Source: Armatimonadetes bacterium 55-13 (GTDB taxonomy: Bacteria; Armatimonadota; Fimbriimonadia; Fimbriimonadales; Fimbriimonadaceae). Taken from it: a stretch of 64,000 nt of DNA. How positions within the stretch are numbered: the first letter of the stretch is position 1; every line of letters starts with the position of its first letter. The stretch covers positions 124,436-188,435 of the forward strand of contig MKRX01000006.1 of NCBI GenBank assembly GCA_001898035.1, read 5' to 3'. A program made the position numbers and the translations under genes. Shown here one piece after another: positions 10,390 to 60,079 of the stretch. The notes under the pieces were generated by a model, which worked only from the letters and a program-made list of their open reading frames with translations, did not search any database and was not told the origin of the DNA.

Positions 10390-11199
10390 CTAGCACGTTT
10401 CTAAACCCATCCGCAGCTGACTACACCTACTGACTCTTACTTGACGCCTCTCTGCCAGTTCGAGTTCAATATCCTCGTAAATTTTTATGTCGAGCACCAC
10501 CCTGGCAAGGGGACTTACGTGGGCCAAACGATCTAGGTCCACCTCCGTCACGTAACCCAACCGTGGATACCCACCCAATGTCGGACCATCTGGACCTATC
10601 GTAATTAACTGTCCGCTTGGCGTGATCTGAATCGTGCCCACGCAGCAAGGCTCACTCACAATCTCTGCCAATCCCAATGGCCCCATCCCATCCATCCGAA
10701 TCCCCATCCGACTCATCTTCGGATTGATCGTGAGTTCAAGTCGGCCGACTGATTCAAACCCCTCGGCGGGCAGATATCCAATCGGCCCCAATCGGAGCGA
10801 GCTAGGAGGATCTGCCAGCCTCGCCACCCGTCCTCTGCCACCAACCCCCCATCCGCCCGGCTCGGCCAAATAGACCGTTCCCAAGGTGCTCACCTGAACC
10901 ACCTCCCCCTCATAAACCTGGATCGCCGAGTTACCCACACGGGGTTGACCGTCCACCATCAATCCCTGCACCGATCCAACGTTGCTCAAAACCGTACTCT
11001 TGGTACAAACGAGCTCTGCGGTACCGCCAAATATCTCGAGCGCCGACTGCTCAAGCGAGTTCCCGACAAGGCACTGCGCAAGTTCAAAACTCTCGGAATC
11101 CAGCGGCCCTCCCGGCGGTACTCCATACCGACGGCGAGAAAGTCCTCCCTCCCGCACGACGGTTGCGATCCCAAATATGCGCTTGAGATCAAAGCTCAA
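10390..11199 (-). CDS. pxpC: 5-oxoprolinase subunit C (biotin-dependent carboxylase-like, KipA family)
   Basis: PxpC forms, with PxpA and PxpB, the ATP-dependent 5-oxoprolinase that converts pyroglutamate to glutamate. The N-terminal segment GLSRRRYGVPPGGPLDSESF is the hallmark of the family, followed by GGTAELVC and ITIGPDGPTLGGYPRLGYV. At 269 aa it is somewhat short for PxpC (around 310 aa is common). Translation starts at TTG 11199, whose TTGA overlaps the pxpA stop, so the subunits are coupled. The order B-A-C on the minus strand makes one operon transcribed away from dut. Confidence 0.9.
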   Translation of the reverse strand: MSFDLKRIFGIATVVREGGLSRRRYGVPPGGPLDSESFELAQCLVGNSLEQSALEIFGGTAELVCTKSTVLSNVGSVQGLMVDGQPRVGNSAIQVYEGEVVQVSTLGTVYLAEPGGWGVGGRGRVARLADPPSSLRLGPIGYLPAEGFESVGRLELTINPKMSRMGIRMDGMGPLGLAEIVSEPCCVGTIQITPSGQLITIGPDGPTLGGYPRLGYVTEVDLDRLAHVSPLARVVLDIKIYEDIELELAERRQVRVSRCSQLRMGLETC

Positions 11200-21818: not shown

Positions 21819-22085
21819 TCAATCTTCCGGATCGTCGTAATGATAATGATCCTGGTGCGCCGAAGAAAAACGCGCGATGTATCCCGGCATCTTCTGCTCA
21901 TCCCTCTTGATGTTCAATCTCCCAGACTCTAGAAGCCAATCGTAAACCCCCGTCCCGAGCGGATACTCCGTCAACACCCCTCGAAGATCGTTCTCAACCA
22001 CCCACCGATCCCCTGCTTCCCGACTGCGAAACACTGCCCGAGGGAGAACTCCACGCCCCTCCTGGAAAACCCAGATCGAACTCAC
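21819..22085 (-). CDS. Small protein of unknown function, DUF7710-like (paralogue of next gene)
   Basis: This 88-aa acidic/aromatic protein starts at GTG 22085, overlapping the stop of the gene upstream by GTGA. Its plan IWVFQEGRGVLPRAVFRS, then A-WV, LRGVLTEYPLGTGVYDWLL, and a C-terminal HYHYDDPED resembles a family of small proteins of unknown function (I recall it as DUF7710). It is a diverged tandem copy of the upstream gene, sharing the VW/LFQ-F-A-W-LxGxL pattern. Its location in an array of small orphan genes suggests an immunity-type role (inference). Confidence 0.7.
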   Translation of the reverse strand: MSSIWVFQEGRGVLPRAVFRSREAGDRWVVENDLRGVLTEYPLGTGVYDWLLESGRLNIKRDEQKMPGYIARFSSAHQDHYHYDDPED

Positions 22086-22357
22086 GAGATCAACTCCCCA
22101 TCTCGAAATTCTAAAATCCCAAGCTCTTCCATCGAACGTCCGCTCGCCGCAACATAGCTGTCCAACTCATCCACCGAGAGCCCCCGGATTTCCGCCCCAA
22201 CTCCATCCGGCGCAAAGTCATACCGAACCAATAAACCCGAAAGCCCATGCTTCTGAATCCAAGCCTCCGCCTGAGCCACATCCACGAACGCCCCTGAAAC
22301 AAAACACCGCGCCCGAGCCTGAAACAACCACACACCCTTTGAAACATCCAAGGTCAT
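22082..22357 (-). CDS. Small protein of unknown function, tandem paralogue of the downstream gene
   Basis: The 91-aa protein reads VWLFQARARCFVSGAFVDV, AEAWIQKHGLSGLLVRYDF, paralleling the gene at 21819 (WVFQ, AVF, VVENDLRGVLTEY). The C-terminal half differs (an alpha-helical DELDSYVAASGRSMEELGI segment). The stop overlaps the next start, so the pair is co-translated. There is no signal peptide or membrane span, so it is predicted cytoplasmic. Function unknown. Confidence 0.7.
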   Translation of the reverse strand: MTLDVSKGVWLFQARARCFVSGAFVDVAQAEAWIQKHGLSGLLVRYDFAPDGVGAEIRGLSVDELDSYVAASGRSMEELGILEFRDGELIS

Positions 22358-22696
22358 TCACCTTTCCCAACTCGATCGTTCGCGGCGCCCGCGGCCGACA
22401 CCGATACGCCATTCTGCCGATCCAATTCCCGTTGGTTATGGCAACTCATCACCGAAAAACCATATTCATGACGAGACAAGACTTAAGTCGCGAGCACCCT
22501 CTCAAGGGCTCAGTACTCCGCACTAGCGCACCCAATCCGGCCACCGGCAGGTGTAGTCGGCGGTCCCCCCGGCGTGAGCGGAACCACCCGCAGAGCGCCC
22601 CCACCAAAACCCGCCCCTCAACGCGAAGCGTGCAACCGAGACCAAGCCATCCCGCTCTCCAAATAAAGGAGAATCATCCCCAAACCAGAACAAACC
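22358..22696. other. 339-bp gap without a recognisable gene
   Basis: I see no credible coding sequence on either strand; short open frames show no family features or start signals. The middle (about 22530-22640) is C-rich with small inverted repeats. It may hold the promoter of the two DUF7710-like genes or decayed sequence. Confidence 0.5.
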
Positions 22697-23029
22697 CTAT
22701 CCTTTCGCAAAGGATTCTGCCGTCGCGAGCAAATGAGCCAAGGCTCCAATCAAATCCTCAACCAAACGCCCATACTCGTCGACGCGGTCGTCTTTGACAG
22801 AAGCAAACTCGACAAACTCATCGTCCAGAACCTGAATAAGCTCTTCAACCAAACTCCGAGAAACCCTTCCCATACGCCGTGCCTCCCGGAACCGGCTGTA
22901 CAAGTCGTCATTCGTTCGAAGGACAATCGCCTTTAGCGCTCGATCATCCAAAACCCGACTCTCCATCTTCTCACTGGCTAAACGAAAATGGCGGATCATA
23001 GACCAGCCGCCATTCGTAAAGAAATGCAT
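22697..23029 (-). CDS. Hypothetical helical protein
   Basis: The 110-aa protein is mostly alpha-helical and charged (DDLYSRFREARRMGRVSRSL, LVEELIQVLDDEFVEFASV, LVEDLIGALAHLLATAESF). ATG 22997 (residue 11, MIRHFRLA) is an alternative start. It follows the 23060 gene by 30 bases in the same direction, so is probably co-transcribed. I do not recognise a family. The regular small size and company fit an immunity-protein-like array. Confidence 0.55.
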   Translation of the reverse strand: MHFFTNGGWSMIRHFRLASEKMESRVLDDRALKAIVLRTNDDLYSRFREARRMGRVSRSLVEELIQVLDDEFVEFASVKDDRVDEYGRLVEDLIGALAHLLATAESFAKG

Positions 23030-23059
23030 TCCAATAAGCTAGCGCCGGAACGCCCAGGC

Positions 23060-23587
23060 TCACCGCACACGCCAGCCAACCAACTCATTGTTCCTCAGCA
23101 TGAGCTCATGCAGTTCCCCCGCAGTACGGACAATCTGAGGCCAGAAGGAACTCTCCACACATTCCTTCCCGGTCAAATACCTGCGCCCCTCAAATGACTT
23201 CTCCAAGAGTTGAACAAGCTGTTTAGTCAGAGCGACCTCTGCTTCATCAATAAAGACCGACCAGATCTCAGACCCAATGAGGTCATCAATATGTTCCGAA
23301 ATCCCCCAATCGTCAAAGACGGTGTGGAGCACCAGCAAGAACATCCATTCCACATCTGGATCACTCGCTTTCCACTTCTCGGCCAATTCTGGGGAGACCA
23401 AGCTATCAAGGGACTCAATCAGATTGATACGTCCGTCAGACCTTGGAACATTCACACCACCATTTTTGCTCAATTGAGCCTTAACTTCCCTGTTGGAAGT
23501 TAGCTTCTCCCGCGATTCTAACAAACTGATCCATGAAAACTCTTCGAAAGGCAACTCAAACATCGTTTGCACGATGTATCCCGACAC
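23060..23587 (-). CDS. Hypothetical cytoplasmic protein, immunity-like
   Basis: The 175-aa acidic protein has MFELPFEEFSWISLLESREK, NLIESLDSLVSPELAEKW, WMFLLVLHTVFDDWGISEHI and ends LMLRNNELVGWRVR. There are no signal peptide or membrane segments. The start could also be the Met at residue 9. The pattern resembles uncharacterised small proteins that accompany polymorphic toxins, but I cannot name a family. It lies in a same-strand array with 18-30 bp gaps. Confidence 0.6.
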   Translation of the reverse strand: MSGYIVQTMFELPFEEFSWISLLESREKLTSNREVKAQLSKNGGVNVPRSDGRINLIESLDSLVSPELAEKWKASDPDVEWMFLLVLHTVFDDWGISEHIDDLIGSEIWSVFIDEAEVALTKQLVQLLEKSFEGRRYLTGKECVESSFWPQIVRTAGELHELMLRNNELVGWRVR

Positions 23588-23605
23588 CCTTTCCTAGATA
23601 AATCT

Positions 23606-23902
23606 TTACTTCTTCCAGATCGTCACTCGATTCTCAGCGAAAGGTTCCTTCAAGACTTCCTGCCTCCAATCCGCCCGAGATCCACTGAAGGCATCGATAA
23701 GGTCTCTCATGACTTCATTGAATCCCGGCGTGTCTTCACTAAAATATATCTTAGATTCCTTTTTGTGTACTTCTACCCAAATGGTGTCGATCGTGAAATT
23801 ATCCTCTTTATACGCGATGACCTCTTCCACATCTGAAAGAGCCATCTCATACTCGTTAAGATGGATTGCGCCGTCAGTAATCCAGACTCGAAATTTTTCC
23901 AT
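23606..23902 (-). CDS. Hypothetical small protein, immunity-like
   Basis: From ATG 23902 it is 98 aa (MEKFRVWITDGAIHLNEYEM); an upstream ATG at 23935 would add 11 residues. Sequence such as TIWVEVHKKESKIYFSEDTP and GFNEVMRDLIDAFSG suggests a compact alpha/beta fold. The region is AT-richer than the flanking housekeeping genes, suggesting acquisition. It is a member of the minus-strand array. Function unknown. Confidence 0.6.
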   Translation of the reverse strand: MEKFRVWITDGAIHLNEYEMALSDVEEVIAYKEDNFTIDTIWVEVHKKESKIYFSEDTPGFNEVMRDLIDAFSGSRADWRQEVLKEPFAENRVTIWKK

Positions 23903-23951
23903 TTGTTGACGTGATAATATTTGAATTACCGGCATATCTTGCCGTTCTGAA

Positions 23952-24158
23952 CTATTGCAAAAGACACCTTATCTCGGGCGGGTTCCCAGTGATGTCAGCA
24001 ATGACAAGACTGCCATCGAGCACACTTGGAGAGTGCTCGATGGTCTGAGCGATTATTGATTTGAGTTTGTTACTTAACGTTTCGCGAAAATCGCAAGAAT
24101 TCAGGAGGCTACGACAGCCAGACGGGTCATCCACCCAGCTAACGAGAAGCGGGCGCAT
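23952..24158 (-). CDS. Possible small ORF overlapping the 3' end of the upstream gene
   Basis: This 68-codon frame from ATG 24158 overlaps the stop region of the gene at 24139 by 20 bases. It encodes WVDDPSGCRSLLNSC, IIAQTIEHSPSVLDGSLVIA and similar. It may be a real small gene or a shifted continuation of its neighbour. No family recognised. Confidence 0.35.
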   Translation of the reverse strand: MRPLLVSWVDDPSGCRSLLNSCDFRETLSNKLKSIIAQTIEHSPSVLDGSLVIADITGNPPEIRCLLQ

Positions 24159-24573
24159 GAGGTTTGGGAATCATAAGCCAAATCCGAAGCTTTAACTCTT
24201 CAAATTCTTTAGCGCTAAGAGCATAGTCCTCAGCCCCCCGACGAACGTTTCCGTCACAATCGACCAGTAAGATATCCTTGGGGCCAATATCTAACCTTAG
24301 CCGAACCATATTACTAGAGAATTTTCCCTTCTTGGTAGGCCGTTGAAGAAGATCAATCACCTTTTTGAAATCACCCTTAACTAAGGACGAGATGTCATAG
24401 TGATTCTTAATGCTCTCGGCAGATACTCCGTACAGAGTATTCGCCTCAAACTCCAAAAAATAGACTTTCGCGGGCTTTCTTTCGCTGGTAGAAGGCGCCG
24501 CTACCGACGAACGTCCACCAAAGATCATACTCAAGCAGACCGCAAGCATTAGAGCCGATGTGAAATACTTCAT
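24139..24573 (-). CDS. Hypothetical secreted protein
   Basis: The 144-aa protein has an N-terminal signal peptide (MKYFTSALMLAVCLSMIFGG, cleavage near SVAAPS) and a ~115-residue mature domain with AKVYFLEFEANTLYGVSAES and DIGPKDILLVDCDGNVRRG. It starts 3 bases after the stop of the HELGH fragment upstream, so the two were likely one operon. An exported partner next to a metallopeptidase tip could be a periplasmic immunity protein or an accessory factor. The family is not recognised. Confidence 0.6.
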   Translation of the reverse strand: MKYFTSALMLAVCLSMIFGGRSSVAAPSTSERKPAKVYFLEFEANTLYGVSAESIKNHYDISSLVKGDFKKVIDLLQRPTKKGKFSSNMVRLRLDIGPKDILLVDCDGNVRRGAEDYALSAKEFEELKLRIWLMIPKPHAPASR

Positions 24574-24576
24574 GTT

Positions 24577-24871
24577 TTATTTTCCTCTATAATCGTTCCC
24601 GTCATCTTCTGCTCCAGTCATGAGATGCCCCAGTTCATGGGCAAGCATTCGTGTCCAATCGAATGGTATAAGTCCAGCCCGAGACATAAGCAAAACGTTC
24701 AGAGCACCTCTACGTAACGTAACTAATCCGCCGGACATGGTTATTGAAGGGCCCATGGATGAGCTAGTGCTATTGAACCCATCGTCTACGTCATTGATGA
24801 GGTATGTGCCCCACTTAAAAGCTCTCTACCCAGCCTTTGCCATGTTTAGTTCGGCCGGTTCCAAAAGCGCA
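24577..24871 (-). pseudogene. Broken metallopeptidase C-terminal fragment (HELGH), toxin-tip-like
   Basis: Translation of the minus strand from 24825 to 24577 gives 82 residues ending LAHELGHLMTGAEDDG plus NDYRGK and a stop: a zincin HExxH motif with a terminal tail as in C-terminal metallopeptidase toxins of RHS/polymorphic type. In this frame a TAG stop (24826-24828) lies just upstream. The preceding frame, 24871-24818, reads plausible protein (FGTGRTKHGKGWVESF) and ends in TAA, so one frameshift would join it to KWGTYLINDVDDGF. The rest of the gene is missing; the neighbouring lipoprotein gene ends at 24879. It is most likely a degraded or displaced toxin tip. Confidence 0.6.
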
Positions 24872-24878
24872 TCCCTCT

Positions 24879-25220
24879 CTAGTCCCTCTCCTGACTTTCA
24901 GCCGTGATCTTAACGGCAAGCTTTTCGCCGTCATCCACCCTATTCAAGTCTTCGGAATAGAAGTTCCTTGAATAGACGATCTTATGGTCGCCCTCACGTC
25001 TGGCAAGGATCCGCATCGCTCCTCCGCGAAATACCTTCTCCGAAAGCTTAGTCACCTTGCCGGGATTGATAAGCTCACGGAACTCTTTGGAGTCGATTTC
25101 AACGAGAATGCCCCAAGGAGTTGAATTCTCAATTTTGACTGTCCTAAGCTGACTACGGCACCCACCGGCCATAACAAAGCAAGCAGCAAAGATCAACCGC
25201 CCGAACGCTCTATCCATCAT
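24879..25220 (-). CDS. Small lipoprotein of unknown function
   Basis: Starting at ATG 25220 (preceded by GGAAGG), the 113-aa protein has a lipoprotein signal (FGRLIFAACFVMAGGC) and a mature domain with IENSTPWGILVEIDSKEFRE and VTKLSEKVFRGGAMRILARR. No family recognised. It is the first gene of the minus-strand accessory array. The promoter is probably just upstream, within or beside the repeat cluster before queF. Confidence 0.65.
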   Translation of the reverse strand: MMDRAFGRLIFAACFVMAGGCRSQLRTVKIENSTPWGILVEIDSKEFRELINPGKVTKLSEKVFRGGAMRILARREGDHKIVYSRNFYSEDLNRVDDGEKLAVKITAESQERD

Positions 25221-25283
25221 CCTCGACCTTCCAGTATGTCGGCTCTGCTTCAAGTCCTCTTATGGAGAGCCTACACGCGCAGC

Positions 25284-25430
25284 ACCCCTAACACCTAGCG
25301 CGAAGCGCCCTAACACCTCGTCCCTAGTCCCTGGTCCCTGCGGCGAAGCCGCGTAGTCCCTCGTACCTGCCGCAAAGCGGCGCAGTCCCTGCCGCAAAGC
25401 GGCGAAGTCCCTGGCGCGAAGCGACGAAGA
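25284..25430. repeat. Cluster of short repeats and small palindromes upstream of queF
   Basis: Units CCTAACACCT (two), TCCCTrG heptamers (several from 25321) and spacers containing CGGCGAAGCCG (25341-25351) and GCCGCAAAGCGGC (25369-25381 and 25391-25403) alternate through 147 bases. CCTAACACCT also occurs at 15760-15780. This looks like a short tandemly repeated repetitive element. Confidence 0.8.
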
Positions 25431-27612: not shown

Positions 27613-28263
27613 CTACTCCAACCGAGAACGAAGCTCATCGCCCTGCTGTTCATTCTTCTCGCTGCCCTCATAAGCGTCAACAATGTCCTTGGCATCCCTT
27701 AGATCAACCCCGAGCGATTCCCGAATCTCTTTGATCGCGTTCAGCTTTTCCCCAGGGTGAGCCGCAAAGAACTCATCCAAGATAGGCTCAGCCCGCACCA
27801 TCATCTCATCCGTTCCCATCCTTCGGTGCCGCCGCCGAACCCATCGCCGAAACTTGGCTTCATCGTCTGGTGCAACAAACGTGCTGAAGAAGTCGGTAAT
27901 AACCCCAATCCCCCAACAAGCCAAAACCCATCCCGGCCAGAAGTAATGTCGCCCCGTCATCCACCAGATGCCAACAAGGACCGCGTTCGTGGCAAAGAAT
28001 GTAGAGAGATCGTTAAAGAAGTTCTTCCGCTTACTCTGCCGGTACTCCTTCCGCAGCTCCTGCTCCTCTTGCTCAACGCGATCAGCTTCGCGCTTCTTCT
28101 GCAGTTGAGATTCCGCCCGCAACACCGCGTCCGGCGAGATCCCAAGCTCCGCCGCCGTCTGAATCAACTTCTCACGGCTCATCCCACCCGATAGAGAGTC
28201 ACGGGAAGCCAAACGAAGAATCTCCTCGGCGTCGTGATCGTTATAGAATTGCTGGTCGCTCAT
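27613..28263 (-). CDS. Two-span membrane protein with ribosomal-L7/L12-like C-terminal motif
   Basis: The 216-aa protein has an N-terminal helical part (DAEEILRLASRDSLSGGMSR, LGISPDAV) of the kind found in short-helix oligomerisation domains, a charged coiled-coil (residues about 60-95), a 2TM block (FFATNAVLVGIWWMTG, FWPGWVLACWGIGVITDFF), then a basic RRWVRRRHRRMG stretch. The C-terminal GEKLNAIKEIRESLGVDLRD-AKDIVDAY resembles the bL12 C-terminal domain pattern (K-IxxIRExxGxxLxxAKxxV). Function unknown. It is convergent with nothing; mntR-like gene follows 38 bases downstream, so the two may share a transcript. Confidence 0.75.
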   Translation of the reverse strand: MSDQQFYNDHDAEEILRLASRDSLSGGMSREKLIQTAAELGISPDAVLRAESQLQKKREADRVEQEEQELRKEYRQSKRKNFFNDLSTFFATNAVLVGIWWMTGRHYFWPGWVLACWGIGVITDFFSTFVAPDDEAKFRRWVRRRHRRMGTDEMMVRAEPILDEFFAAHPGEKLNAIKEIRESLGVDLRDAKDIVDAYEGSEKNEQQGDELRSRLE

Positions 28264-28308
28264 CCGCGCTTCTAGTTTACGAGCAACACAAGCCCAAATA
28301 TTCGCAAC

Positions 28309-29475
28309 CTACCGAACATCCCGCCATAGCCACTTCAGTGAATCGGAAAAAATCGCTCGTCCATGCTTATCGCTATGAAATCCCTTCGCGCCCACGAACT
28401 TGTAGTCGTACTTCTTAAACTTGAACGCCGACTCCATCGATAGATTGCACAGCCACCAGTTTCCGAACTGGTTGTCAACATCATGAGTGCCGTCCTGAAG
28501 AAACACTCTAATGGGCTTTGGATCATTCCGCCTTATCAGCGCCGGATAGTTATGCCCACCCGCAATTCCACTTTCGCCACCGGCGATGTTCGAGAAGCTG
28601 CCAACCCAACTCAAGACCTTGCTAAACTTGTCCGGCCGTTGCCATGCGGCCGTGAAGGCGCAAATTCCGCCGCTGCTAATCCCCGCGATCGCCCAACTCG
28701 CGGCATCTTCCCTCAGATTCACTTTCTTCTGAGTCTCGGGAATCATCTCTTCAAGTAGAAAACGCACGTAAGTGTCCGATAAAGTGTCGTACTCACGGGA
28801 CCGATTTGATTTCCCGTCCGCAAATGTCCCCGGAGCAATGAAAATCGCCACTGTCACCGGCATCTCGCCCTTAGCAATCAGGTTGTCCAACACGACCGGC
28901 GAATAGCCATGAGACCACTGCCCATCTTGGAACACCATCAAACATGCAGGTTTCTCTGCCGAATATTGAGCAGGCACATAGATCCACCAATCTCGCTCCG
29001 TCCCCGCATAGATTTGGCTTGACCACTTCAGTTGGGTGACGACACCTTTGGGCACATCAGGATTGGAAACACTATATGGGTCGGGTCGATAAACCTCTAG
29101 CGGTCGATCAGGGCCAACCTGCTTTCCATCCACTTCAAAGTGCCAAAGAAATCCGCTTGAGTCAGGAAGCTCCAGGACCAAAGCAAACGCATTGGTTGAC
29201 CCAATCCTCTTAAGCGAGAACGACTGTTCATCGTCTGTTACAACCGCCACTTTCTTCGCTCCAGGCGCATCAATTGCCCATGCCACATCAAGGCCATCGG
29301 CTTTGGAATCGGCTCCAGTTGAAAAGTCCTTGCCGAACCACTTGGCTAGTCGATCGACGAGCCCAGCCTTATCGCCGCGGGCCTTTAGCTCAGATCGCAA
29401 AGTCTTGGGACTCAGGGATTGGGGCATGGCCGAACAAACGAGAAGAATCAACAACAGACAACTGGAGAATCTCAC
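28309..29475 (-). CDS. Secreted alpha/beta-hydrolase esterase (enterochelin-esterase/Fes-like)
   Basis: GTG 29475 gives a signal peptide (RFSSCLLLILLVCSAMPQSL); the longer open frame upstream overlaps the divergent flavoprotein gene and is rejected. An N-terminal CBM-like/early-set region (about 60-130) precedes the esterase D-type domain: RDWWIYVPAQYSAEKPACL, nucleophile elbow GISSGGICAF, acid in LQDGTHDVDN and His in GFHSDKHGRA. These exported esterases cleave acyl or siderophore-like esters; the substrate is unknown. Proximity to the metal repressor hints at, but does not show, an iron link. Confidence 0.85.
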   Translation of the reverse strand: MRFSSCLLLILLVCSAMPQSLSPKTLRSELKARGDKAGLVDRLAKWFGKDFSTGADSKADGLDVAWAIDAPGAKKVAVVTDDEQSFSLKRIGSTNAFALVLELPDSSGFLWHFEVDGKQVGPDRPLEVYRPDPYSVSNPDVPKGVVTQLKWSSQIYAGTERDWWIYVPAQYSAEKPACLMVFQDGQWSHGYSPVVLDNLIAKGEMPVTVAIFIAPGTFADGKSNRSREYDTLSDTYVRFLLEEMIPETQKKVNLREDAASWAIAGISSGGICAFTAAWQRPDKFSKVLSWVGSFSNIAGGESGIAGGHNYPALIRRNDPKPIRVFLQDGTHDVDNQFGNWWLCNLSMESAFKFKKYDYKFVGAKGFHSDKHGRAIFSDSLKWLWRDVR

Positions 29476-29560
29476 GGATGTTATATTCGACGTCACCCGC
29501 CAAAGTCCTGTCACCGCGCTCGATATCGAATAAAGCCTCTTCGGAGGTACAACATCAAGG

Positions 29561-30847
29561 ATGGTTAAGCCGGTTGTAGTTGTTGGTGCTGGACTTGCGG
29601 GTCTAGCTTGCGCACGCAAGCTATATGAATCTGGAGTGCCCGTGATTGTCGTAGATGCCGACGATCGACCAGGTGGACGCCTCAAGACAGACAAAGTAGA
29701 AGGCTTTCAGCTTGACAGGGGCTTCCAAGTCTTCTTCACCGCCTATCCCCATGCCAAGCGTCAGCTTGATCTGGAGTCGCTCAACCTGAAGAGCTTCAAG
29801 AACGGCGCCCAGGTTTACTTCGACGGCAGCCTCCATAAGTTGGAGTTGCAGACGTTCAAAGAACTCCTCCTTTCCAAGTTTGAGTTACTCAGAGACAAAA
29901 CCATCCCTCTCGCTGATAAGAAGAAGTTGGCAAAGCTCTGTAACGGTATTGGCAGCATGTCACCCCGGGAAATCTCACGACTTGAGCCAATGACCACGCT
30001 TGAGTACCTTGAAGACTTCGGATTTAGCGACGAGGCGATCGATCGATTTTTCCGACCATTCCTCGGCGGAATCTTCCTTGATCGGGACTTGAAAGTTGAT
30101 TCTCGACAGTTTGCGTTTGTATGGAGCATGCTCCAGCAGGGACAAACCGTTGTTCCTAACGCCGGAATCGAAGCGATCGCAACCCAAATCTCCGCAGATA
30201 TACCGAGATACCTCTTTAGATTCGGAAACAAGGTCTCCGAGATCATTCGAGATGATTCGGGCCATCCTTGCGGCGTTCGTTTTGACACAAGCGAAGAAAT
30301 AGCAGCCAGCGCGGTGGTTCTGGCGACCGAGGCTCCCGAAGCAGCGCGACTCTCGGGCCATGCAACCGTAGAAGGCGCAAAATCCTCCACTTGCCTGTAT
30401 TTCGAAACAGGTTCACCCTGCGTCGACGGAGCTTATCTCGTCCTCAATGGAACTGGCCAAGGCATCGTGAACCATGTAGCCCCGATCTCAAACGCGGCTC
30501 CTAGCTATGCGCCAGCGGGTAAGTACCTTGCCTCGGTGACAATCCTGGGCAACCCGGCTGAGTCCGATCAAAATTTGGCGGAAATCGCAAAAGCTGAACT
30601 GACAAACTGGTTCCCAGACAAGGGGGCGAACATGTGGCGATTTATTCGTGGATATCGTGTTCCTTACGCTCAAATGGCCCAGCCGGTCGGTTTCATGGAG
30701 AAGGCGCCTGGAAACGCGGTCGGAACGCCAGGTCTTTATCAAGCTGGTGAGTTCACGGAAAACTCGAGCATCGACGGTGCGATCCGAAGTGGCGTTGAGT
30801 GCGCTGCCCTTCTTCTTTCTGAGAGAGAGGCTACGGAGGCGGCTTGA
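29561..30847 (+). CDS. FAD-dependent amine-oxidase/desaturase-like flavoprotein
   Basis: The 428-aa protein has VVVVGAGLAGLACARKLYES, VVDADDRPGGRLKTD and LDRGFQVFFTAYP, the flavin-containing amine oxidase/phytoene-desaturase fold, with a C-terminal FAD motif (GLYQAGEFTENSSIDGAIRS, SGVECA). An AAGG/GGAGG Shine-Dalgarno precedes ATG 29561. It overlaps the next gene by TTGA. No carotenoid genes lie nearby, so the substrate is open. It heads a four-gene run ending in dapB. Confidence 0.88.
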   Translation: MVKPVVVVGAGLAGLACARKLYESGVPVIVVDADDRPGGRLKTDKVEGFQLDRGFQVFFTAYPHAKRQLDLESLNLKSFKNGAQVYFDGSLHKLELQTFKELLLSKFELLRDKTIPLADKKKLAKLCNGIGSMSPREISRLEPMTTLEYLEDFGFSDEAIDRFFRPFLGGIFLDRDLKVDSRQFAFVWSMLQQGQTVVPNAGIEAIATQISADIPRYLFRFGNKVSEIIRDDSGHPCGVRFDTSEEIAASAVVLATEAPEAARLSGHATVEGAKSSTCLYFETGSPCVDGAYLVLNGTGQGIVNHVAPISNAAPSYAPAGKYLASVTILGNPAESDQNLAEIAKAELTNWFPDKGANMWRFIRGYRVPYAQMAQPVGFMEKAPGNAVGTPGLYQAGEFTENSSIDGAIRSGVECAALLLSEREATEAA

Positions 30848-31827
30848 GGGTAGCCATCGTCGGCGCAGGCATCGCTGGCCTGGCCGCTGGCCGAACCCTC
30901 CAGAAGTCAGGCGCCTCAGTTGTCCTTTATGACAAGGCACGGGGCGTAGGAGGACGGCTTGCCACCCGACGTGTACAAGACTTCGTCTTCGATACCGGAG
31001 CTACCAGTATTGCTCCTCGCGGTTTGGGCATCGAAACAGCGATGCTGGCAGAGCTTGATCAGTCAGAGCTCATCCAGATTCAAAAGCCAATCTACACGCA
31101 CACGAATCTGAGAGTCAGTCCCGGAGATACTGCCAGAAATAGCACGCCGAGGTACACCTACCGCCCAGGCTCGAATCATCTTGCCAAACTCCTTGCCGAG
31201 GGGTTGGATGTTCGATTGAACACCCAAGTTGACACACTCAAGCGTGACGGACAAACATTTGAAGTAGAGGGTTCAACATTCGATGCGGTTATTCTCACGC
31301 CGCCGATTCCTCAAGCATCTCTTCTCTTGTGGTCACTCGGAGAGAGCCGCCCGGTTGCCAACGCTCGATATCGTTCCTGCATCTCAATCATGCTAGGCTT
31401 TGATCAGCCGACACCTGACATTCCCTACCACGCCCTAATCGATGTTGAGCAAAGGCATCCTTTGACGTGGATCAGCGTCGAGAGCGCGAAGTGTCCGGGG
31501 CGAGCTCCCGAGGGCAAAACCGCGATGGTCCTTCAAATGAGCCCAACCTACAGCCACGATCACTACCAAACGTCGGATGAGAGGATCATTCCGGATGTCC
31601 TGGGCTATGTTCAGGACCTCTTCGGATCCGAGTTCAACTCTCCGGTAGCCATCGATACCAAACGCTGGAAGTATTCGCAGCCGGAGACCGTTGCCGTTTT
31701 CGAGACCGTGAATAACAACCACAACGGCGTGATTTTGGCTGGCGATGGCTTGGCGGCAGGAAGGGTGGAAAGAGCTTATGAATCGGGCTTGATGGCAGCG
31801 CGTCTGCTTCTTGAGGAATCCAGTTGA
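30844..31827 (+). CDS. Renalase-like FAD/NAD(P)-binding oxidoreductase
   Basis: The 327-aa protein starts at TTG 30844 within the TTGA overlap. Motifs RVAIVGAGIAGLAAGRTL, YDKARGVGGRLATRR and DTGATSIAPR are those of bacterial renalases, which oxidise aberrant dihydro-NAD(P) isomers; ILAGDGLAAGRVERAYESG is the C-terminal flavin motif. Two flavoproteins in tandem, coupled by overlapping codons, suggests a shared pathway or protection role. The substrate is inferred by family only. Confidence 0.87.
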   Translation: MRVAIVGAGIAGLAAGRTLQKSGASVVLYDKARGVGGRLATRRVQDFVFDTGATSIAPRGLGIETAMLAELDQSELIQIQKPIYTHTNLRVSPGDTARNSTPRYTYRPGSNHLAKLLAEGLDVRLNTQVDTLKRDGQTFEVEGSTFDAVILTPPIPQASLLLWSLGESRPVANARYRSCISIMLGFDQPTPDIPYHALIDVEQRHPLTWISVESAKCPGRAPEGKTAMVLQMSPTYSHDHYQTSDERIIPDVLGYVQDLFGSEFNSPVAIDTKRWKYSQPETVAVFETVNNNHNGVILAGDGLAAGRVERAYESGLMAARLLLEESS

Positions 31828-32471
31828 AACAGTTCTTATCCATCCTTGGGCTAGGGTTGGTAGCCATCTCTGGGGCACAGGTCAAGATGTCCATTGAGGT
31901 TGGTGGCAAGGTCCTAGGAACCGCTTCCGTCACTCAACAAGTCAAGTCCGATGGTAGCAAGTTCCTCGAATACCGAATGGATTGGACATCTGGTCAAACC
32001 AAGATGACTCTTAGGTCTCAAAACACCTACGACAAAGAGGGAGCTCCTATTCGGAAGTTTATGGAGGCAATCATCCCAGGCGGGAAGATGCAACGTCAAA
32101 TCGTTGCCACCTTCGACAAGGAGGGAGCGAATCTGGTGATTCTCGACGGTGGAGATCGCAAGACAAAGCAGGTCCCCCTCACTCAAACCGCCCCTCGAAA
32201 GAACAAGAGCGAGTTTTGGTTTCTCAGAGACAAACCGAAGGTGGGTGATAAAGTAGACAGCTATGTCTTTAACATGGACTCATTACAGTGGGAACTCCAA
32301 ACCGCAACCTTTAAGGGAACGAAGAGCATTGAGATTGGCGGCAAAAAGATACTGGCCCACGAAGTCGAAACAACAGGAAATCGAAAGGCCACCGCATTCC
32401 TTGACGATCATGGGTTACCATGGCTCATTGAATCGGGATCGATGACGATGCGGCGTATCCCGGAGAAATGA
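31824..32471 (+). CDS. Hypothetical secreted protein
   Basis: Starting at TTG 31824 in another TTGA overlap, the 215-aa protein has a short signal peptide (KQFLSILGLGLVAISGAQV) and a mature beta-rich domain (LEYRMDWTSGQTKMTLRSQN, FWFLRDKPKVGDKVDSYVFN, FLDDHGLPWLIESGSMTMRR) reminiscent of DUF3108-like periplasmic proteins. One base separates its stop from dapB. No function assigned. Confidence 0.78.
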   Translation: MKQFLSILGLGLVAISGAQVKMSIEVGGKVLGTASVTQQVKSDGSKFLEYRMDWTSGQTKMTLRSQNTYDKEGAPIRKFMEAIIPGGKMQRQIVATFDKEGANLVILDGGDRKTKQVPLTQTAPRKNKSEFWFLRDKPKVGDKVDSYVFNMDSLQWELQTATFKGTKSIEIGGKKILAHEVETTGNRKATAFLDDHGLPWLIESGSMTMRRIPEK

Positions 32472-32472
32472 A

Positions 32473-33285
32473 ATGGACGAAAACGGAATTATTAAGGTTG
32501 CGGTTATTGGTGCGGCTGGGCGTATGGGGCAAGAAGTCTTGCGAACCGTTAGTCAAGAGCCAGGAATCGAAATCGTCGTTGCATGCGATCGGGAACATGT
32601 AGGAGAAAACTGCCGAGATTTTGCTGGGGGAAGGGCTCCTGATCTTATTGTTTCCGATAAGCTGGGCGCATCGCTAGATAATACGAAGGTTGACGTATTG
32701 ATCGACTTCAGCCACGCCTCCGGCGCGGCTTCTCACTCAGAATCTGCGGTCAAACGTGGGATCTCTCCCATCATCGGGGCAACAGGTTTAAGTGACAGCG
32801 ATTCTCGCGAGATATTCCTGCGCTGCAAGGAAACCGGTGTGCCAGGAATGTATGTTCCGAACTTTGCTATCGGTGCAGTTTTGATGATGCGATTCTCTGA
32901 AATGGCAGCACGATGGATGCCGGATTGCGAGATCATCGAGCTCCATCACGATCGCAAGGAAGATGCCCCAAGTGGGACGGCCATGCGCACGGCGGAGATG
33001 ATTCAGGAAGCGAGGCAGGATTCGCCTACCCGCAAACCCCGTACCGCTTTTAAAGTTGAAGGGGTGCGTGGTGGCACGTATAAGGACGTCGTCCTACATT
33101 CTGTACGACTGCCTGGCCTTCTAGCTCACCAGCAAGTCATGTTCGGCCGTCCGGGCGAGTTGCTGACGATCAAACACGATTCAATGGATCGTACTTCTTT
33201 TATGCAGGGCGTGGCGCTGGCGGTGCGAGAAGTGCGGGGTCTGCAGGGCTTTGTCGTTGGGCTCGACAAGATCCTTTTCAGATAA
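32473..33285 (+). CDS. dapB: 4-hydroxy-tetrahydrodipicolinate reductase
   Basis: DapB catalyses the NAD(P)H-dependent step of diaminopimelate and lysine synthesis. VAVIGAAGRMGQEVLRTV is the nucleotide-binding site, IDFSHASGA and the family signature ELHHDRKEDAPSGTAMRTAE (catalytic His, Lys/Asp and dipicolinate-binding SGT) are intact. At 270 aa the length is typical. It is the last gene of the run beginning at 29561; no other lysine genes are in the window. Confidence 0.97.
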   Translation: MDENGIIKVAVIGAAGRMGQEVLRTVSQEPGIEIVVACDREHVGENCRDFAGGRAPDLIVSDKLGASLDNTKVDVLIDFSHASGAASHSESAVKRGISPIIGATGLSDSDSREIFLRCKETGVPGMYVPNFAIGAVLMMRFSEMAARWMPDCEIIELHHDRKEDAPSGTAMRTAEMIQEARQDSPTRKPRTAFKVEGVRGGTYKDVVLHSVRLPGLLAHQQVMFGRPGELLTIKHDSMDRTSFMQGVALAVREVRGLQGFVVGLDKILFR

Positions 33286-33407
33286 TGGTAGCGGGCCGCC
33301 TATGAGACTTGCGACTTCTTTGTCGAGTCTAGCGGTGAAGATACTCTTGTCAATCGTTTAGAACCGATGGTCAAGGCGCTCGGTGTCGAAAAACGGAAAT
33401 AAGATTG

Positions 33408-39316: not shown

Positions 39317-41356
39317 TTAGTCGTTGACGTAGTCCTTTGAGAGGCCCATGCCTTCGGGGGCGTGGAGGCGGAGCATTTTTACTCTTACGTTGGCGGGTAT
39401 AGAGCCAGCGGTGGCTTTCGAGACCACGACCATGGTGAGGAGCGAGAAGGGGACGGCCCAGATGGCGGGTTGCTCCATGAGGGAGCGAATCAATGGGGAG
39501 ACGTTCCAGGTGAGGACCTTCTTGTCCAGAAGCATCGAGCAGATGATGGCACCGACGGAGCAGAGACCTCCGAGGAGCATGCCCGCACCCGCGCCGTAGC
39601 GAGTGAGGCCCCGCCACCAAGATCCCAAAAGGAGTAGCGGGAAGTAGCTAGCAGCGCCGATGGCGAAGGCCCAGCCGACCATGGTAGCGATATCGAAGGT
39701 CTCTACGAGGAGGCCGAGGACGATGGAGAGGAAGCCGACACCGATGGCGGCGATCTTAAAGGCCTTGAGTCGGCTATCGGCAGAGGCCCCTGGGCGGATG
39801 ATCTTTCCATAGATGTCGTGGGCGAAGGCTCCCGACATGGAGACAAGGAGTCCGGAGAAGGTGGACATGAAGGCGGCGAAGGCTCCGGCGCTGGTGACGC
39901 CGCTGAGCACTTGGCCGAGGACCTTGTTTTCGAGGAGCGTGGGGAGTTTGATGACGGCTGAGTCGGTGGCTCCGTTTGCGTAGAGCACTGGCATGAGCGT
40001 TCTCCCGAGAACACCCCAGATGGGGGTGAAGAAGTAGAACGCGCCGAGCATGACCATGACCCAGAGAGTGGTTCGCTTGGCGGCTCGGCCGTCCGGGTTG
40101 GTATAGAAGCGGACCAAGATGTGGGGGAGGCCCGCGGTGCCGCACACCAACGCGATGATGAGCGAGTAGGTGTAGAGCATGGGGTAGCCCCATTTGCTGG
40201 TCATGGCTCCGAAGGGGTTGAGCCACTTTCCATTGGGCGAGGTGTTGGGAGCGAGCGCACCGGCTTCGGGGTCTGACGCATCGGTGACCTCACTCTTTAG
40301 TCCGGGCTTGATGAGGCTTACGACGGCGGGTTGATCGAACTCGATCTTCGCGGAGGTTTTGACTTCCTTGCCGTCTTTCATCACAGGTTGACCGCCCTTG
40401 GTAACGGTGACGGTCTTAGTGATGAAGACCGAACCGGGCTCGCAGGTGTAGCCTTCGGCGTTGCCGGGGATGGGCGGAGCGGTGGCGGAGGCCTCGTATT
40501 GGAGGCCGGGAAGGTGGCCGACGAGGGCGTCGGCGGTGATAGGATCTTCTCCGGGTTCAGGCTTCCTGGCCGGGCCTATTTTTGAGAGGATGGCTCCCTT
40601 GGGAAAGGTTATGAGGGTCGGTTCACTGGCGGCAAAGCTCATGGCATTTGCGGGGACCGCAGCTTTGCCTTTGATCTTGATCTCGGCCCCTGGGGTGATT
40701 CGGGGGGTGACGGCGGGGTCTCCGAACGTCTTGGCGGCATCGAGACCGGTGTGGCCGGTGAGGGCCATGATGACGAAGACGGGGGCGGAAATGGCGAAGA
40801 GCTTGACCCAGTATTGGAAGGCCTGAACGATGGTGATGCCCTTCATGCCGCCGATGGCGACATTGAAGGTGATGACCGCGCCAACGACGACGATGCCGGC
40901 CCAGTAGGGCCAGTTGAGGATGCTGGCCATGGTGACGCCCGCGCCCTTCATTTGAGGCATGGTGTAGAAGAAGCCGATGAAGAGAACGAAGGTGACGGCG
41001 ACCTTTCGGAAGGTGGGGCTATCGAAGCGGCCCTCGGCGAAGTCGGGAATGGTGTAGGCGCCGAAGCGTCGCAAGGGACCGGCGATGAAGAGCAGCAGAA
41101 AGAGGTAGCCCGCGGCGTAACCGACCGGATACCAGAGGGCATCATAGCCGTTCTTCATGATGAGTCCGGCAACACCCATGAACGAGGCGGCGCTGAGATA
41201 CTCACCGGAGATGGCGGAGGCGTTCCAGAAGACGCTGACGGAGCGACCGGCGACGAAGAAGTCGGAGGCGGTTTTGCTGCGGCCGGTGGCCCAGATGCCG
41301 AGGCCGATGGTGGCGAGAACGATGACGACCACGAAAATGAAGGGGATCAGTTCCAT
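39317..41356 (-). CDS. Sodium:solute symporter, acetate permease (ActP)-like, with large insertion
   Basis: The 679-aa protein begins with the SSS-family signature (FFVAGRSVSVFWNASAISGE, YLSAASFMGVAGL) and about 13 membrane spans. Its partner DUF485 protein is encoded directly upstream (TAATG overlap), as in yjcH-actP. It is about 130 residues longer than ActP because of a hydrophilic insertion (residues about 205-375) rich in Pro/Lys, between spans 6 and 7. Likely a Na-driven uptake system for acetate, pyruvate or a related monocarboxylate; no acs gene is nearby. Confidence 0.92.
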   Translation of the reverse strand: MELIPFIFVVVIVLATIGLGIWATGRSKTASDFFVAGRSVSVFWNASAISGEYLSAASFMGVAGLIMKNGYDALWYPVGYAAGYLFLLLFIAGPLRRFGAYTIPDFAEGRFDSPTFRKVAVTFVLFIGFFYTMPQMKGAGVTMASILNWPYWAGIVVVGAVITFNVAIGGMKGITIVQAFQYWVKLFAISAPVFVIMALTGHTGLDAAKTFGDPAVTPRITPGAEIKIKGKAAVPANAMSFAASEPTLITFPKGAILSKIGPARKPEPGEDPITADALVGHLPGLQYEASATAPPIPGNAEGYTCEPGSVFITKTVTVTKGGQPVMKDGKEVKTSAKIEFDQPAVVSLIKPGLKSEVTDASDPEAGALAPNTSPNGKWLNPFGAMTSKWGYPMLYTYSLIIALVCGTAGLPHILVRFYTNPDGRAAKRTTLWVMVMLGAFYFFTPIWGVLGRTLMPVLYANGATDSAVIKLPTLLENKVLGQVLSGVTSAGAFAAFMSTFSGLLVSMSGAFAHDIYGKIIRPGASADSRLKAFKIAAIGVGFLSIVLGLLVETFDIATMVGWAFAIGAASYFPLLLLGSWWRGLTRYGAGAGMLLGGLCSVGAIICSMLLDKKVLTWNVSPLIRSLMEQPAIWAVPFSLLTMVVVSKATAGSIPANVRVKMLRLHAPEGMGLSKDYVND

Positions 41357-46061: not shown

Positions 46062-48002
46062 ATGGCGATCGGCATTGGTTGCGTGCTCGTCACCACTGCC
46101 CTCACAACGGCTTCCATTCCGCTGATGCGGAACGGCATTCAGGCGATTACCGATGTCGCAGGCTTTACCGAGCAAAAGATTTTCTCTTCGGGAGAGATCG
46201 ATCGAATCTCTCAAAGGACAGGAAAGACGACGCGGGAGGTAGTCCTGGCTCTGTCTCCGATTCAGCATCAGCGGGACCTTTCCGGGGTGGTGCTGACGGT
46301 TGAAGAGCAAAAGAAAATTGCGGATTCGTTGGGAGTCAAGTCCGAGCAGCTTTCCTCGATCATTCAGGATGCCCGGGAACATGCGACGCCGAGCCCGACG
46401 CCAGCGGACGCCCTGCGGCAACTGGGGTTGACCTGCCTTTTTGTGGTGGGAGTTTATGGGCTCAAGTATTGGTTTACGCGCGGGCAAAGTTATTACCTAG
46501 CGAAGGCGGCCTCTCGTCTCGCGAGCGATTTGCGCATTCGGCTTTATGCCAAGTTACAGCGGCTTCCGATTAGTTACTTTGGGAGTCGGCGGTCGGGTTC
46601 GATTCAGAGCGTTTTGACGAACGACGTCGGGGTTTACCAGGCGGCGGTGACGATCATTAAGGACAGCATTGACGGTCCGCTGAAGGCGATTGGATCCTTC
46701 GGATATATCTTGTGGACCCAGTGGCAGTTGGGGGCATTGACGCTTCTCTTTTTGCCGCCGATGGTGATTGCGATTCAGCGCAATTCCAAGAAGATGAAGT
46801 CCGCACAGGCCAACGTTCAGAACGATTTGGCGATTCTGAATGGGATGACTTTGGAGTCTTTGCAAGGGACCCGCGTGGTGAAGGCATTTGCGGCGGAAGA
46901 TCGGATGGAAGAGGAGTACCGCGGGTTGGTTGAGAAGACCTTTAGCAGCCAGATGCGGGCGGCTCGGCGGAATGCGACTTTACGGCCCTTGGTCGAAATG
47001 ATCGGCGCTTGTGCGTTAGCGGCATTTCTGTATGCGTCGGGCATATTGGCGTTCCATGGGAATTTGCAGGTGGCGGATCTGGTCGCGTTGGTTTATGCGC
47101 TGGATGTCATCAACCAGGGGTCCAGAAACATCGCCTCGGTGAACAACACCTATGCTCAGGTTCAAGCGGCTTCCGAGCGCATTTATTCGGAAGTTTTGGA
47201 CGTGCCAGAAGAGCATCACGAATCCCTGGGCGCGAAGACGTTGGCGACTCCGAAAGGGCGGATCGAGTTCCAGGGCGTTTCCTTTGCCTATCCCGATGGA
47301 ACGCAGGCTTTGGAGAAAGTCAATTTTGTGCTGGAGCCGGGGACGAGTTTGGCGTTGGTGGGGCCGAGCGGGGCGGGAAAGAGCACCATCGCGGATCTGC
47401 TGCTTCGTTTTTACGATCCTTCAGAGGGAGTGATTCTCTTTGACGGGGTCGACATTCGGGAGTTGGATCTGGCTTGGTTACGGAAGCAGATTGGCGTGGT
47501 TCCCCAGCAAACCTTTCTCTTTGCGGGAACGATTGCGGACAACATTCGCATGGGTAAGCCGGACGCTTCGGCCGCCGAGATCGAGGAGGCGGCGATTGCG
47601 GCACATGCCAGTGTGTTTGTGGACACTTACGAAGAGAAGTACAACTATTTGATTGGCGAGCAGGGTGGCGGGTTGAGTGGGGGAGAGCGTCAACGGGTGG
47701 CGATTGCGCGTGCTCTGGTTCGGAAGCCGACCTTGCTTTTGCTCGACGAGGCGACTTCGGCGTTAGATGCGACGAGCGAGAAGGCGGTTACCGAAGCCTT
47801 GGATGAGATCATGCAGCAGCGGACGACTCTGTTTATCGCGCATCGACTTACGACGGCGGCGAGGGCGGATAAGATTTTGGTTCTGCGTCGGGGTGAGATT
47901 GTAGAGCAGGGTACTCACCGCGAATTGATGGACGCCAACGGCGCTTATGCCGGGTTGTTCCGCGCGTTTTCGCAGGGGGTCCTTGAGGATGGACTCGGGT
48001 AG
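46062..48002 (+). CDS. ABC exporter (fused permease and ATPase), with inserted domain after the first span
   Basis: The 646-aa half-transporter has six predicted spans and an ATPase with Walker A GPSGAGKSTI, signature LSGGERQRVAIARAL, Walker B LLLLDEATSALD and H-loop FIAHRL. Between the first span (residues 2-22) and the second (about 108-130) lies a ~85-residue soluble insert (GEIDRISQRTGKTTREVVLA, LTVEEQKKIADSLGVKSEQL), unusual for this class. The usual elbow helix (FNLFKKFDRRLAADLKTQRK) is encoded upstream of ATG 46062 in frame, so translation may start at CTG 45993. Lipid or drug export is likely, substrate unknown. Confidence 0.9.
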   Translation: MAIGIGCVLVTTALTTASIPLMRNGIQAITDVAGFTEQKIFSSGEIDRISQRTGKTTREVVLALSPIQHQRDLSGVVLTVEEQKKIADSLGVKSEQLSSIIQDAREHATPSPTPADALRQLGLTCLFVVGVYGLKYWFTRGQSYYLAKAASRLASDLRIRLYAKLQRLPISYFGSRRSGSIQSVLTNDVGVYQAAVTIIKDSIDGPLKAIGSFGYILWTQWQLGALTLLFLPPMVIAIQRNSKKMKSAQANVQNDLAILNGMTLESLQGTRVVKAFAAEDRMEEEYRGLVEKTFSSQMRAARRNATLRPLVEMIGACALAAFLYASGILAFHGNLQVADLVALVYALDVINQGSRNIASVNNTYAQVQAASERIYSEVLDVPEEHHESLGAKTLATPKGRIEFQGVSFAYPDGTQALEKVNFVLEPGTSLALVGPSGAGKSTIADLLLRFYDPSEGVILFDGVDIRELDLAWLRKQIGVVPQQTFLFAGTIADNIRMGKPDASAAEIEEAAIAAHASVFVDTYEEKYNYLIGEQGGGLSGGERQRVAIARALVRKPTLLLLDEATSALDATSEKAVTEALDEIMQQRTTLFIAHRLTTAARADKILVLRRGEIVEQGTHRELMDANGAYAGLFRAFSQGVLEDGLG

Positions 48003-58615: not shown

Positions 58616-58658
58616 AGAATGGCACTTCGGGTCCTGGTTCTTTCGCGGGTCCGGTGTG

Positions 58659-58664
58659 TATAAT
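58659..58664 (+). promoter_or_regulatory. Likely -10 element of the dnaA promoter
   Basis: A consensus TATAAT lies 41 bases before the dnaA ATG. The -35 region around 58636-58641 is weak, so an activator may be needed. Confidence 0.55.
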
Positions 58665-58705
58665 CCGAGTCCCCGGGGCCGCCTTTGGCCCTTGTAGGCT
58701 TTGCA

Positions 58706-60079
58706 ATGAATGACCAGTATTCGCTTGAGGACACAGATGATCATATCCGTCTACAGACTGCTTGGAACCAGGTCACAAAGCGAATCAGCGCTGAATTTTC
58801 CGGCCCTTCTTTCGAACGATTTATCCGCCCACTAAAGGCTGTCAGCATCAGCGATGATGCGGTTTCCGTGGTGGCGCCCGGCCGGTTTGTTCATGAGTGG
58901 GTTTCCGCTCGCTGCCTCTCGATGATGGAGGCGTATTTATCGGATGAGCTTGGACGAGTGGTCCGAGTCGATATCACTTGGGAGGCTCGCGAAAAACCGG
59001 AGCAACCCAAATCGCAGGAAGTGCTGATTACGCCGGCGGTGCCGGATCCGGTCGCGTTTAGACCGTATGAGAAATTCTCTTTTGATAGTTTTGTGGTTGG
59101 ACAGAGCAACCGCTTGGCCCATGCAGGCGCCAAGGCGGTGGCATCTGAACCGGGCCGCAAGTTCAATCCCTTGTTCATTTATGGGCAATCGGGATTGGGC
59201 AAGACTCACTTGATGCACGCCATTGCCAAAGAGGTTTTGGCGCGCAATCCGAAGTATCCGCTCGTTTATGTGAGCGCGCAGCAGTTCGCGGAAGAGTTCG
59301 TGAACGCGCTCCAGAACAACCGGGTGGAGCAATTCCGCCGTGCCCAGCGCAATGTGGGTATGTGGCTGGTGGACGACATTCAGTTCATCGCGGGCAAGGA
59401 CAAGACGCAGGAAGAGGTCTTCCACACGTTCAACCACCTTCACTCGTTGGGCAAGCAGATCGTGATCTGTTCGGACCGCCCGCCGCGCGACCTGCACCTG
59501 ATGGATGAGCGACTTCGCTCTCGATTCGAGGCCGGGCTGGTGGCGGACGTTCAGATGCCGGACACCGAGACGCGGTGCGCGATCTTGCAGAGCAAGGCGC
59601 AGCACGATTCGGTCTCGCTGGGCTACGAAGTGGCGATGTACCTGGCGGAGAACGTACCGGGCAACATTCGTGTTCTGGAAGGCGCTTTGACCCGCTTGGC
59701 GGTGCAGGCGAGCTTGGAAGAGCGAGGGTTGGAGTTGGACCTGGCGGAAACGATGGTGGAGCAATACTATCGCGGAACGCTAGCCAAGCCGGACTTCCGC
59801 AAGATCGTCGAAGCGGTTGGGAAGCTCTATAACATTTCGCCCGACGAGATTCGTGGCACCTCAAGAAAGGCGCCGATCGTCCATGCTCGACACGTGGCGG
59901 TGTTTGTGACTCGCGAGATCACCGGCGACTCTTGGAAGCACATCGGAAGCCTGTTTGGCGATCGCGATCACACTTCGATGATGCATGGGTACCAGAAGAT
60001 TCATGAAATGATGCACCAGGACAAGGACCTTCGGGTGACCGTTAAGTCTCTGATGCGCGACCTTTATCCGGAGGGCTAA
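58706..60079 (+). CDS. dnaA: Chromosomal replication initiator protein DnaA
   Basis: The 457-aa protein from ATG 58706 has the N-terminal helicase-loading domain (AWNQVTKRISAEFSGPSFER), AAA+ core with Walker A GQSGLGKTHLMHAIAKEVL, Walker B WLVDDIQFIAGK, sensor RDLHLMDERLRSRFEAGLVA, and the C-terminal DNA-binding domain with DRDHTSMMHGYQKIHEMMHQ. dnaN and recF are not adjacent; thiN and a creatininase-family gene flank it. Rightward transcription fits the G-rich strand as leading strand. Confidence 0.97.
   Translation: MNDQYSLEDTDDHIRLQTAWNQVTKRISAEFSGPSFERFIRPLKAVSISDDAVSVVAPGRFVHEWVSARCLSMMEAYLSDELGRVVRVDITWEAREKPEQPKSQEVLITPAVPDPVAFRPYEKFSFDSFVVGQSNRLAHAGAKAVASEPGRKFNPLFIYGQSGLGKTHLMHAIAKEVLARNPKYPLVYVSAQQFAEEFVNALQNNRVEQFRRAQRNVGMWLVDDIQFIAGKDKTQEEVFHTFNHLHSLGKQIVICSDRPPRDLHLMDERLRSRFEAGLVADVQMPDTETRCAILQSKAQHDSVSLGYEVAMYLAENVPGNIRVLEGALTRLAVQASLEERGLELDLAETMVEQYYRGTLAKPDFRKIVEAVGKLYNISPDEIRGTSRKAPIVHARHVAVFVTREITGDSWKHIGSLFGDRDHTSMMHGYQKIHEMMHQDKDLRVTVKSLMRDLYPEG

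What the first reader, a model, noticed from the sequence alone, without database searches (positions are those of the whole stretch)
28300..33400. GC-skew sign change: possible replication origin region
Sample lines counted by hand show C>G on the given strand up to about 29 kb (for example 5341-5400: 26 C, 15 G; 10861-10920, a minus-strand gene: 25 C, 9 G) and G>C beyond about 32 kb (40981-41040, a minus-strand gene: 13 C, 26 G; 47401-47460: 12 C, 18 G). The sign is independent of gene strand, so it is a replication-strand effect, not codon bias. The lines between about 29.4 and 31.8 kb are mixed. A left-negative, right-positive change is what an origin gives. dnaA is 28 kb to the right.
Basis: partly seen in the sequence, partly recalled or inferred. 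Interest (0 to 1): 0.68.

Follow-up and report, generated by a model that had tools for sequence, protein, structure and literature searches.

The report
Likely replication origin far from dnaA
DNA composition flips sharply at one spot in this bacterium's chromosome, as it does where copying starts, about 27,000 bases from the usual landmark gene dnaA, but the genome shows other flips too, so this is a good candidate for an origin and not a proven or only one.

Summary
The skew sign change is real. The best single change point is 29,542 (28,879-32,033 within 10 lnL), the cumulative minimum 31,725; it is the largest upward step on the 956-kb contig. At fourfold sites the replication-strand part R goes from about -0.41 to +0.36 while the transcription part stays near -0.18, so independence from gene strand holds. 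A recent inversion junction is unlikely: the divergent order 2TM gene | AO1-AO2-hyp spanning it is kept in a same-genus relative and two other genera. No DnaA-box cluster lies at the change; dnaA has mostly one upstream box and no sign change beside it. Best reading: a dnaA-remote initiation site in a genome with jagged skew (Armatimonadota, Fimbriimonadales). Sampled contigs suggest a sawtooth, as several origins would give, but the asymmetry is not significant on the one contig held nearly whole (75 of 500 mosaic shuffles reach it). About 2.66 of 4.53 Mb was not read.

The parts
28879..32033 (.). interval of the GC-skew change point (within 10 lnL; best 29,542)
31725..31725 (.). minimum of cumulative GC skew in the window
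27613..28263 (-). 2TM-domain gene, left side, R -0.66; adjacent to AO1 in three relatives
28309..29475 (-). esterase-family gene, R -0.42; not between 2TM gene and AO1 in three relatives; start GTG near 29,475 read by eye
29476..29560 (.). short divergent intergenic stretch at the best change point; no DnaA box
29561..30847 (+). amine oxidase AO1, R -0.01
30844..31827 (+). amine oxidase-like AO2, R -0.08
31824..32471 (+). hypothetical gene kept in the operon, R -0.16
32473..33285 (+). dapB, R +0.26
58655..58663 (-). exact DnaA box TTATACACA upstream of dnaA, conserved in position in many relatives
58685..60079 (+). dnaA

Best explanation
Forks start within about 29-33 kb and leave in both directions, so the strand that is leading changes here; long-term mutation bias has recorded this as the sign change. 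Shown: the strand-specific composition change, its independence of gene strand, its place inside an old conserved gene order. Inferred: that the cause is initiation of replication, and that it happens at this site. How the initiator recognises the site is not known; the usual DnaA-box cluster is absent.
For: Same replication component in plus genes, minus genes and intergenic DNA, with opposite sign on the two sides and an unchanged transcription component. Sharp, and the largest step on the contig. Negative for the whole 156 kb to the left and positive for about 130 kb to the right. Gene order across the change is shared with G002 (same genus), G008 and G016, which speaks against a junction made by inversion.
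Against: No DnaA-box cluster, no long intergenic stretch and no strong AT-rich element at the change. Right of about 300 kb of C6 the sign turns negative again, which a lone origin here does not explain. Five family relatives show no comparable sign change at the same operon, though their skew is weak so this test has little power. dnaN, parB, parS, rpmH and 16S rRNA are all elsewhere.
Confidence: 0.6

Rival explanations
1. Rearrangement mosaic: a single origin lies elsewhere and the change here is one of many block borders left by inversions and transpositions.
For: C6 has other sharp steps in both directions, including downward ones near 603, 697 and 812-816 kb; gene order in the family is scrambled beyond operons; a shuffled-mosaic null reaches the observed step asymmetry in 75 of 500 trials.
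Against: The change lies inside a gene order shared with relatives, so a border would have to be older than the family and still be sharp at full amplitude.
Confidence: 0.22
2. Several origins on one chromosome, of which this is one, with broad termination zones between them.
For: R falls about linearly from C6:156 to 450 kb (-0.365 per 100 kb, zero at 302 kb), and genes in the zero zone are unimodal around zero and not a mix of flipped genes. Samples of C1 and C2 fall slowly in the same way, and C2 rises from -0.41 to +0.44 between the samples at 200-220 and 250-270 kb. An octamer picked on C6 alone agrees on C1 and C2.
Against: Three plateaus with two steps fit the C6 decline as well as the line (793.4 against 792.6); asymmetry not significant on C6; the sawtooth was noticed after the fact on sparse samples; no natural bacterial chromosome with several working origins is established (PMC4403523 states no current evidence, as of 2015).
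Confidence: 0.13
3. The origin is beside dnaA and an inversion of the 27 kb between moved the sign change.
For: AT-rich 100 bp and an exact DnaA box just upstream of dnaA.
Against: The inversion end would fall inside the conserved order; relatives show no clear sign change at dnaA and mostly only the one box.
Confidence: 0.05

Closest known systems
Fimbriimonas ginsengisoli Gsoil 348 chromosome (PMC4072686)
   Same: Same order; authors report a jagged GC-skew map, replication genes scattered, few DnaA boxes, an origin predicted by skew about 100 kb from dnaA
   Different: That genome is closed; whether its predicted origin lies at the same genes was not tested here
Bacterial oriC remote from dnaA (general knowledge, not looked up)
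   Same: Skew change away from dnaA
   Different: Known cases have DnaA boxes at the site; none clustered here with the E. coli consensus
Multi-origin archaeal chromosomes, e.g. Haloarcula hispanica (PMC3936714), and mammalian N-domains (PMC3320577); both known here from title and abstract only
   Same: Several skew rises with slow falls between them, if the sampled pattern holds
   Different: Those origins rest on experiment; here there is only composition, on part of the genome

Membership tests
bacterial oriC | sharp change of replication-strand skew, minus to plus | tested here: met
bacterial oriC | cluster of DnaA boxes | tested here: not met
   E. coli-type consensus, up to one mismatch; window count at chance level; none clustered at 28-33 kb
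bacterial oriC | AT-rich unwinding element in intergenic DNA | tested here: not met
   none of the lowest-GC stretches of C6 lies at the change; intergenic gap about 85 bases
bacterial oriC | neighbouring replication genes (dnaA, dnaN, rpmH) | tested here: not met
bacterial oriC | global minimum of cumulative skew | tested here: inconclusive
   not the minimum of C6; contigs unordered and most others only sampled
bacterial oriC | initiation in the cell | not testable with these tools
   needs sequencing depth or marker frequency
multi-origin chromosome | upward steps sharper than downward steps | tested here: inconclusive
   C6: 75 of 500 mosaic shuffles reach the observed third moment

The most novel reading that the evidence does not exclude
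The chromosome is replicated from several origins with diffuse termination, giving a sawtooth of replication-strand skew, and this site is one of them.
Probability: 0.13. Interest if true: 0.93.

Novelty: new member of a known kind. Interest (0 to 1): 0.5.

Why it matters
Where Fimbriimonadales start replication is unsettled; this gives one precise place to test. If several such places proved active, a rule about bacterial chromosomes would need an exception.

Tried and rejected
Origin at dnaA: no sign change there and mostly one box only. Recent inversion junction: gene order conserved across the change. Shared sequence between the change here and the other steps on C6: two 27-28-base matches only, not followed.

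Full report
Place. The window is C6:124,436-188,435 of a 4,525,422-base assembly in 27 contigs; C6 has 956,117 bases. The nearest dnaA relatives in named genomes are Fimbriimonadaceae and other Armatimonadota.

Observation. Skew is negative left and positive right of about 29-32 kb, with the best change point at 29,542 and the cumulative minimum at 31,725. To separate transcription from replication I used fourfold-degenerate third positions of ORFs called by a simple codon-usage script (no standard gene finder was available). Plus and minus genes then give a replication part R and a transcription part T. Left and right of the change R has opposite sign and T is alike. I set T to -0.175 from those strong blocks and used it everywhere afterwards, so later R values depend on that choice.

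Gene by gene, R is -0.88, -0.66 and -0.42 up to the esterase, -0.01, -0.08 and -0.16 in AO1, AO2 and the hypothetical gene, +0.26 in dapB and +0.50 in the next gene. The change is thus spread over about 4 kb.

Inversion. In G002 (same genus) the 2TM gene lies divergent to AO1 with about 155 bases between, followed by AO2 and the hypothetical gene; G008 and G016 show the same order, with the 2TM match weak at 30-32% identity (nucleotide match in G002). So the segment from 27.6 to 32.5 kb, which holds the change-point interval, is old. The esterase is not between them in these three. My esterase query was out of frame by two bases, so its lack of hits says nothing; the short gaps do.

Origin features. 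No DnaA-box cluster at the change, chance-level count in the window, seven exact boxes on C6. Upstream of dnaA a TTATACAC(A/G)-like box recurs at about -30 to -65 in many of 30 relatives' loci, and the flanks of dnaA there have the same sign or skew close to zero; I read that box as self-regulation of dnaA, an inference.

Rest of the genome. R on C6 falls from about +0.37 right of the change through zero near 302 kb to about -0.5 at 406-452 kb, stays negative to 511 kb, then is near zero with shorter blocks. Sampled 20-kb stretches of C1 and C2 fall in the same slow manner, and C2 rises sharply somewhere between 220 and 250 kb. The octamer GATGGCGG, chosen on C6 only, is oriented likewise by my count of the listed places: C2 5-51 kb 13 plus to 1 minus, 125-176 kb 1 to 11; C1 up to 30 kb 0 to 5, 45-105 kb 11 to 3, 248-343 kb 6 to 15. 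That is what a sawtooth would look like. Against it, C6 also has sharp falls, a two-step model fits its main decline as well as a line, and the asymmetry test is not significant (75 of 500). I ran the segmentation with three penalties; the largest step is at this change in all three, and the total number of steps varies from 11 to 34 with the penalty. The sawtooth idea came from looking at the samples, before any test was set.

Coverage. 1,863,889 bases of the genome were held and unmasked. Most of C5, C15, C16, C26, C27 and several smaller contigs is unread, so the statement about the genome as a whole is a sampling result.

Relatives. Around the same operon in G011, G008, G012, G004 and G005 there is no change of the size seen here. 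Their skew is mostly below 0.08 in size, so absence is weak evidence.

Literature. F. ginsengisoli has a jagged skew map and scattered replication genes (PMC4072686). Gao 2015 (PMC4403523) discusses several origins in bacteria as an open matter and warns that local skew minima need not be origins.

Noticed in passing
C6:852072-853839 (L038): Two parS-like palindromes, one exact, just left of an upward half-step of R near C6:856 kb; parB is on another contig (C10).
   Followed up: partly
window 58655-58663; L107, L114, L120 and others: A TTATACAC(A/G)-like box at a near-constant distance upstream of dnaA across many Armatimonadota.
   Followed up: partly
window 22000-25400: Low-GC stretch (down to 0.44 per kb) of small ORFs with no clear Pfam match, ending in short tandem repeats near 25,276-25,429.
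   Followed up: partly
C6:512000-680000 and 856000-956000: Long stretches with R near zero and sharp borders to strongly skewed DNA; cause unknown.
   Followed up: partly
window 28309-29475: Esterase-family gene sits between two genes that are neighbours in three relatives: gained here or lost there.
   Followed up: partly
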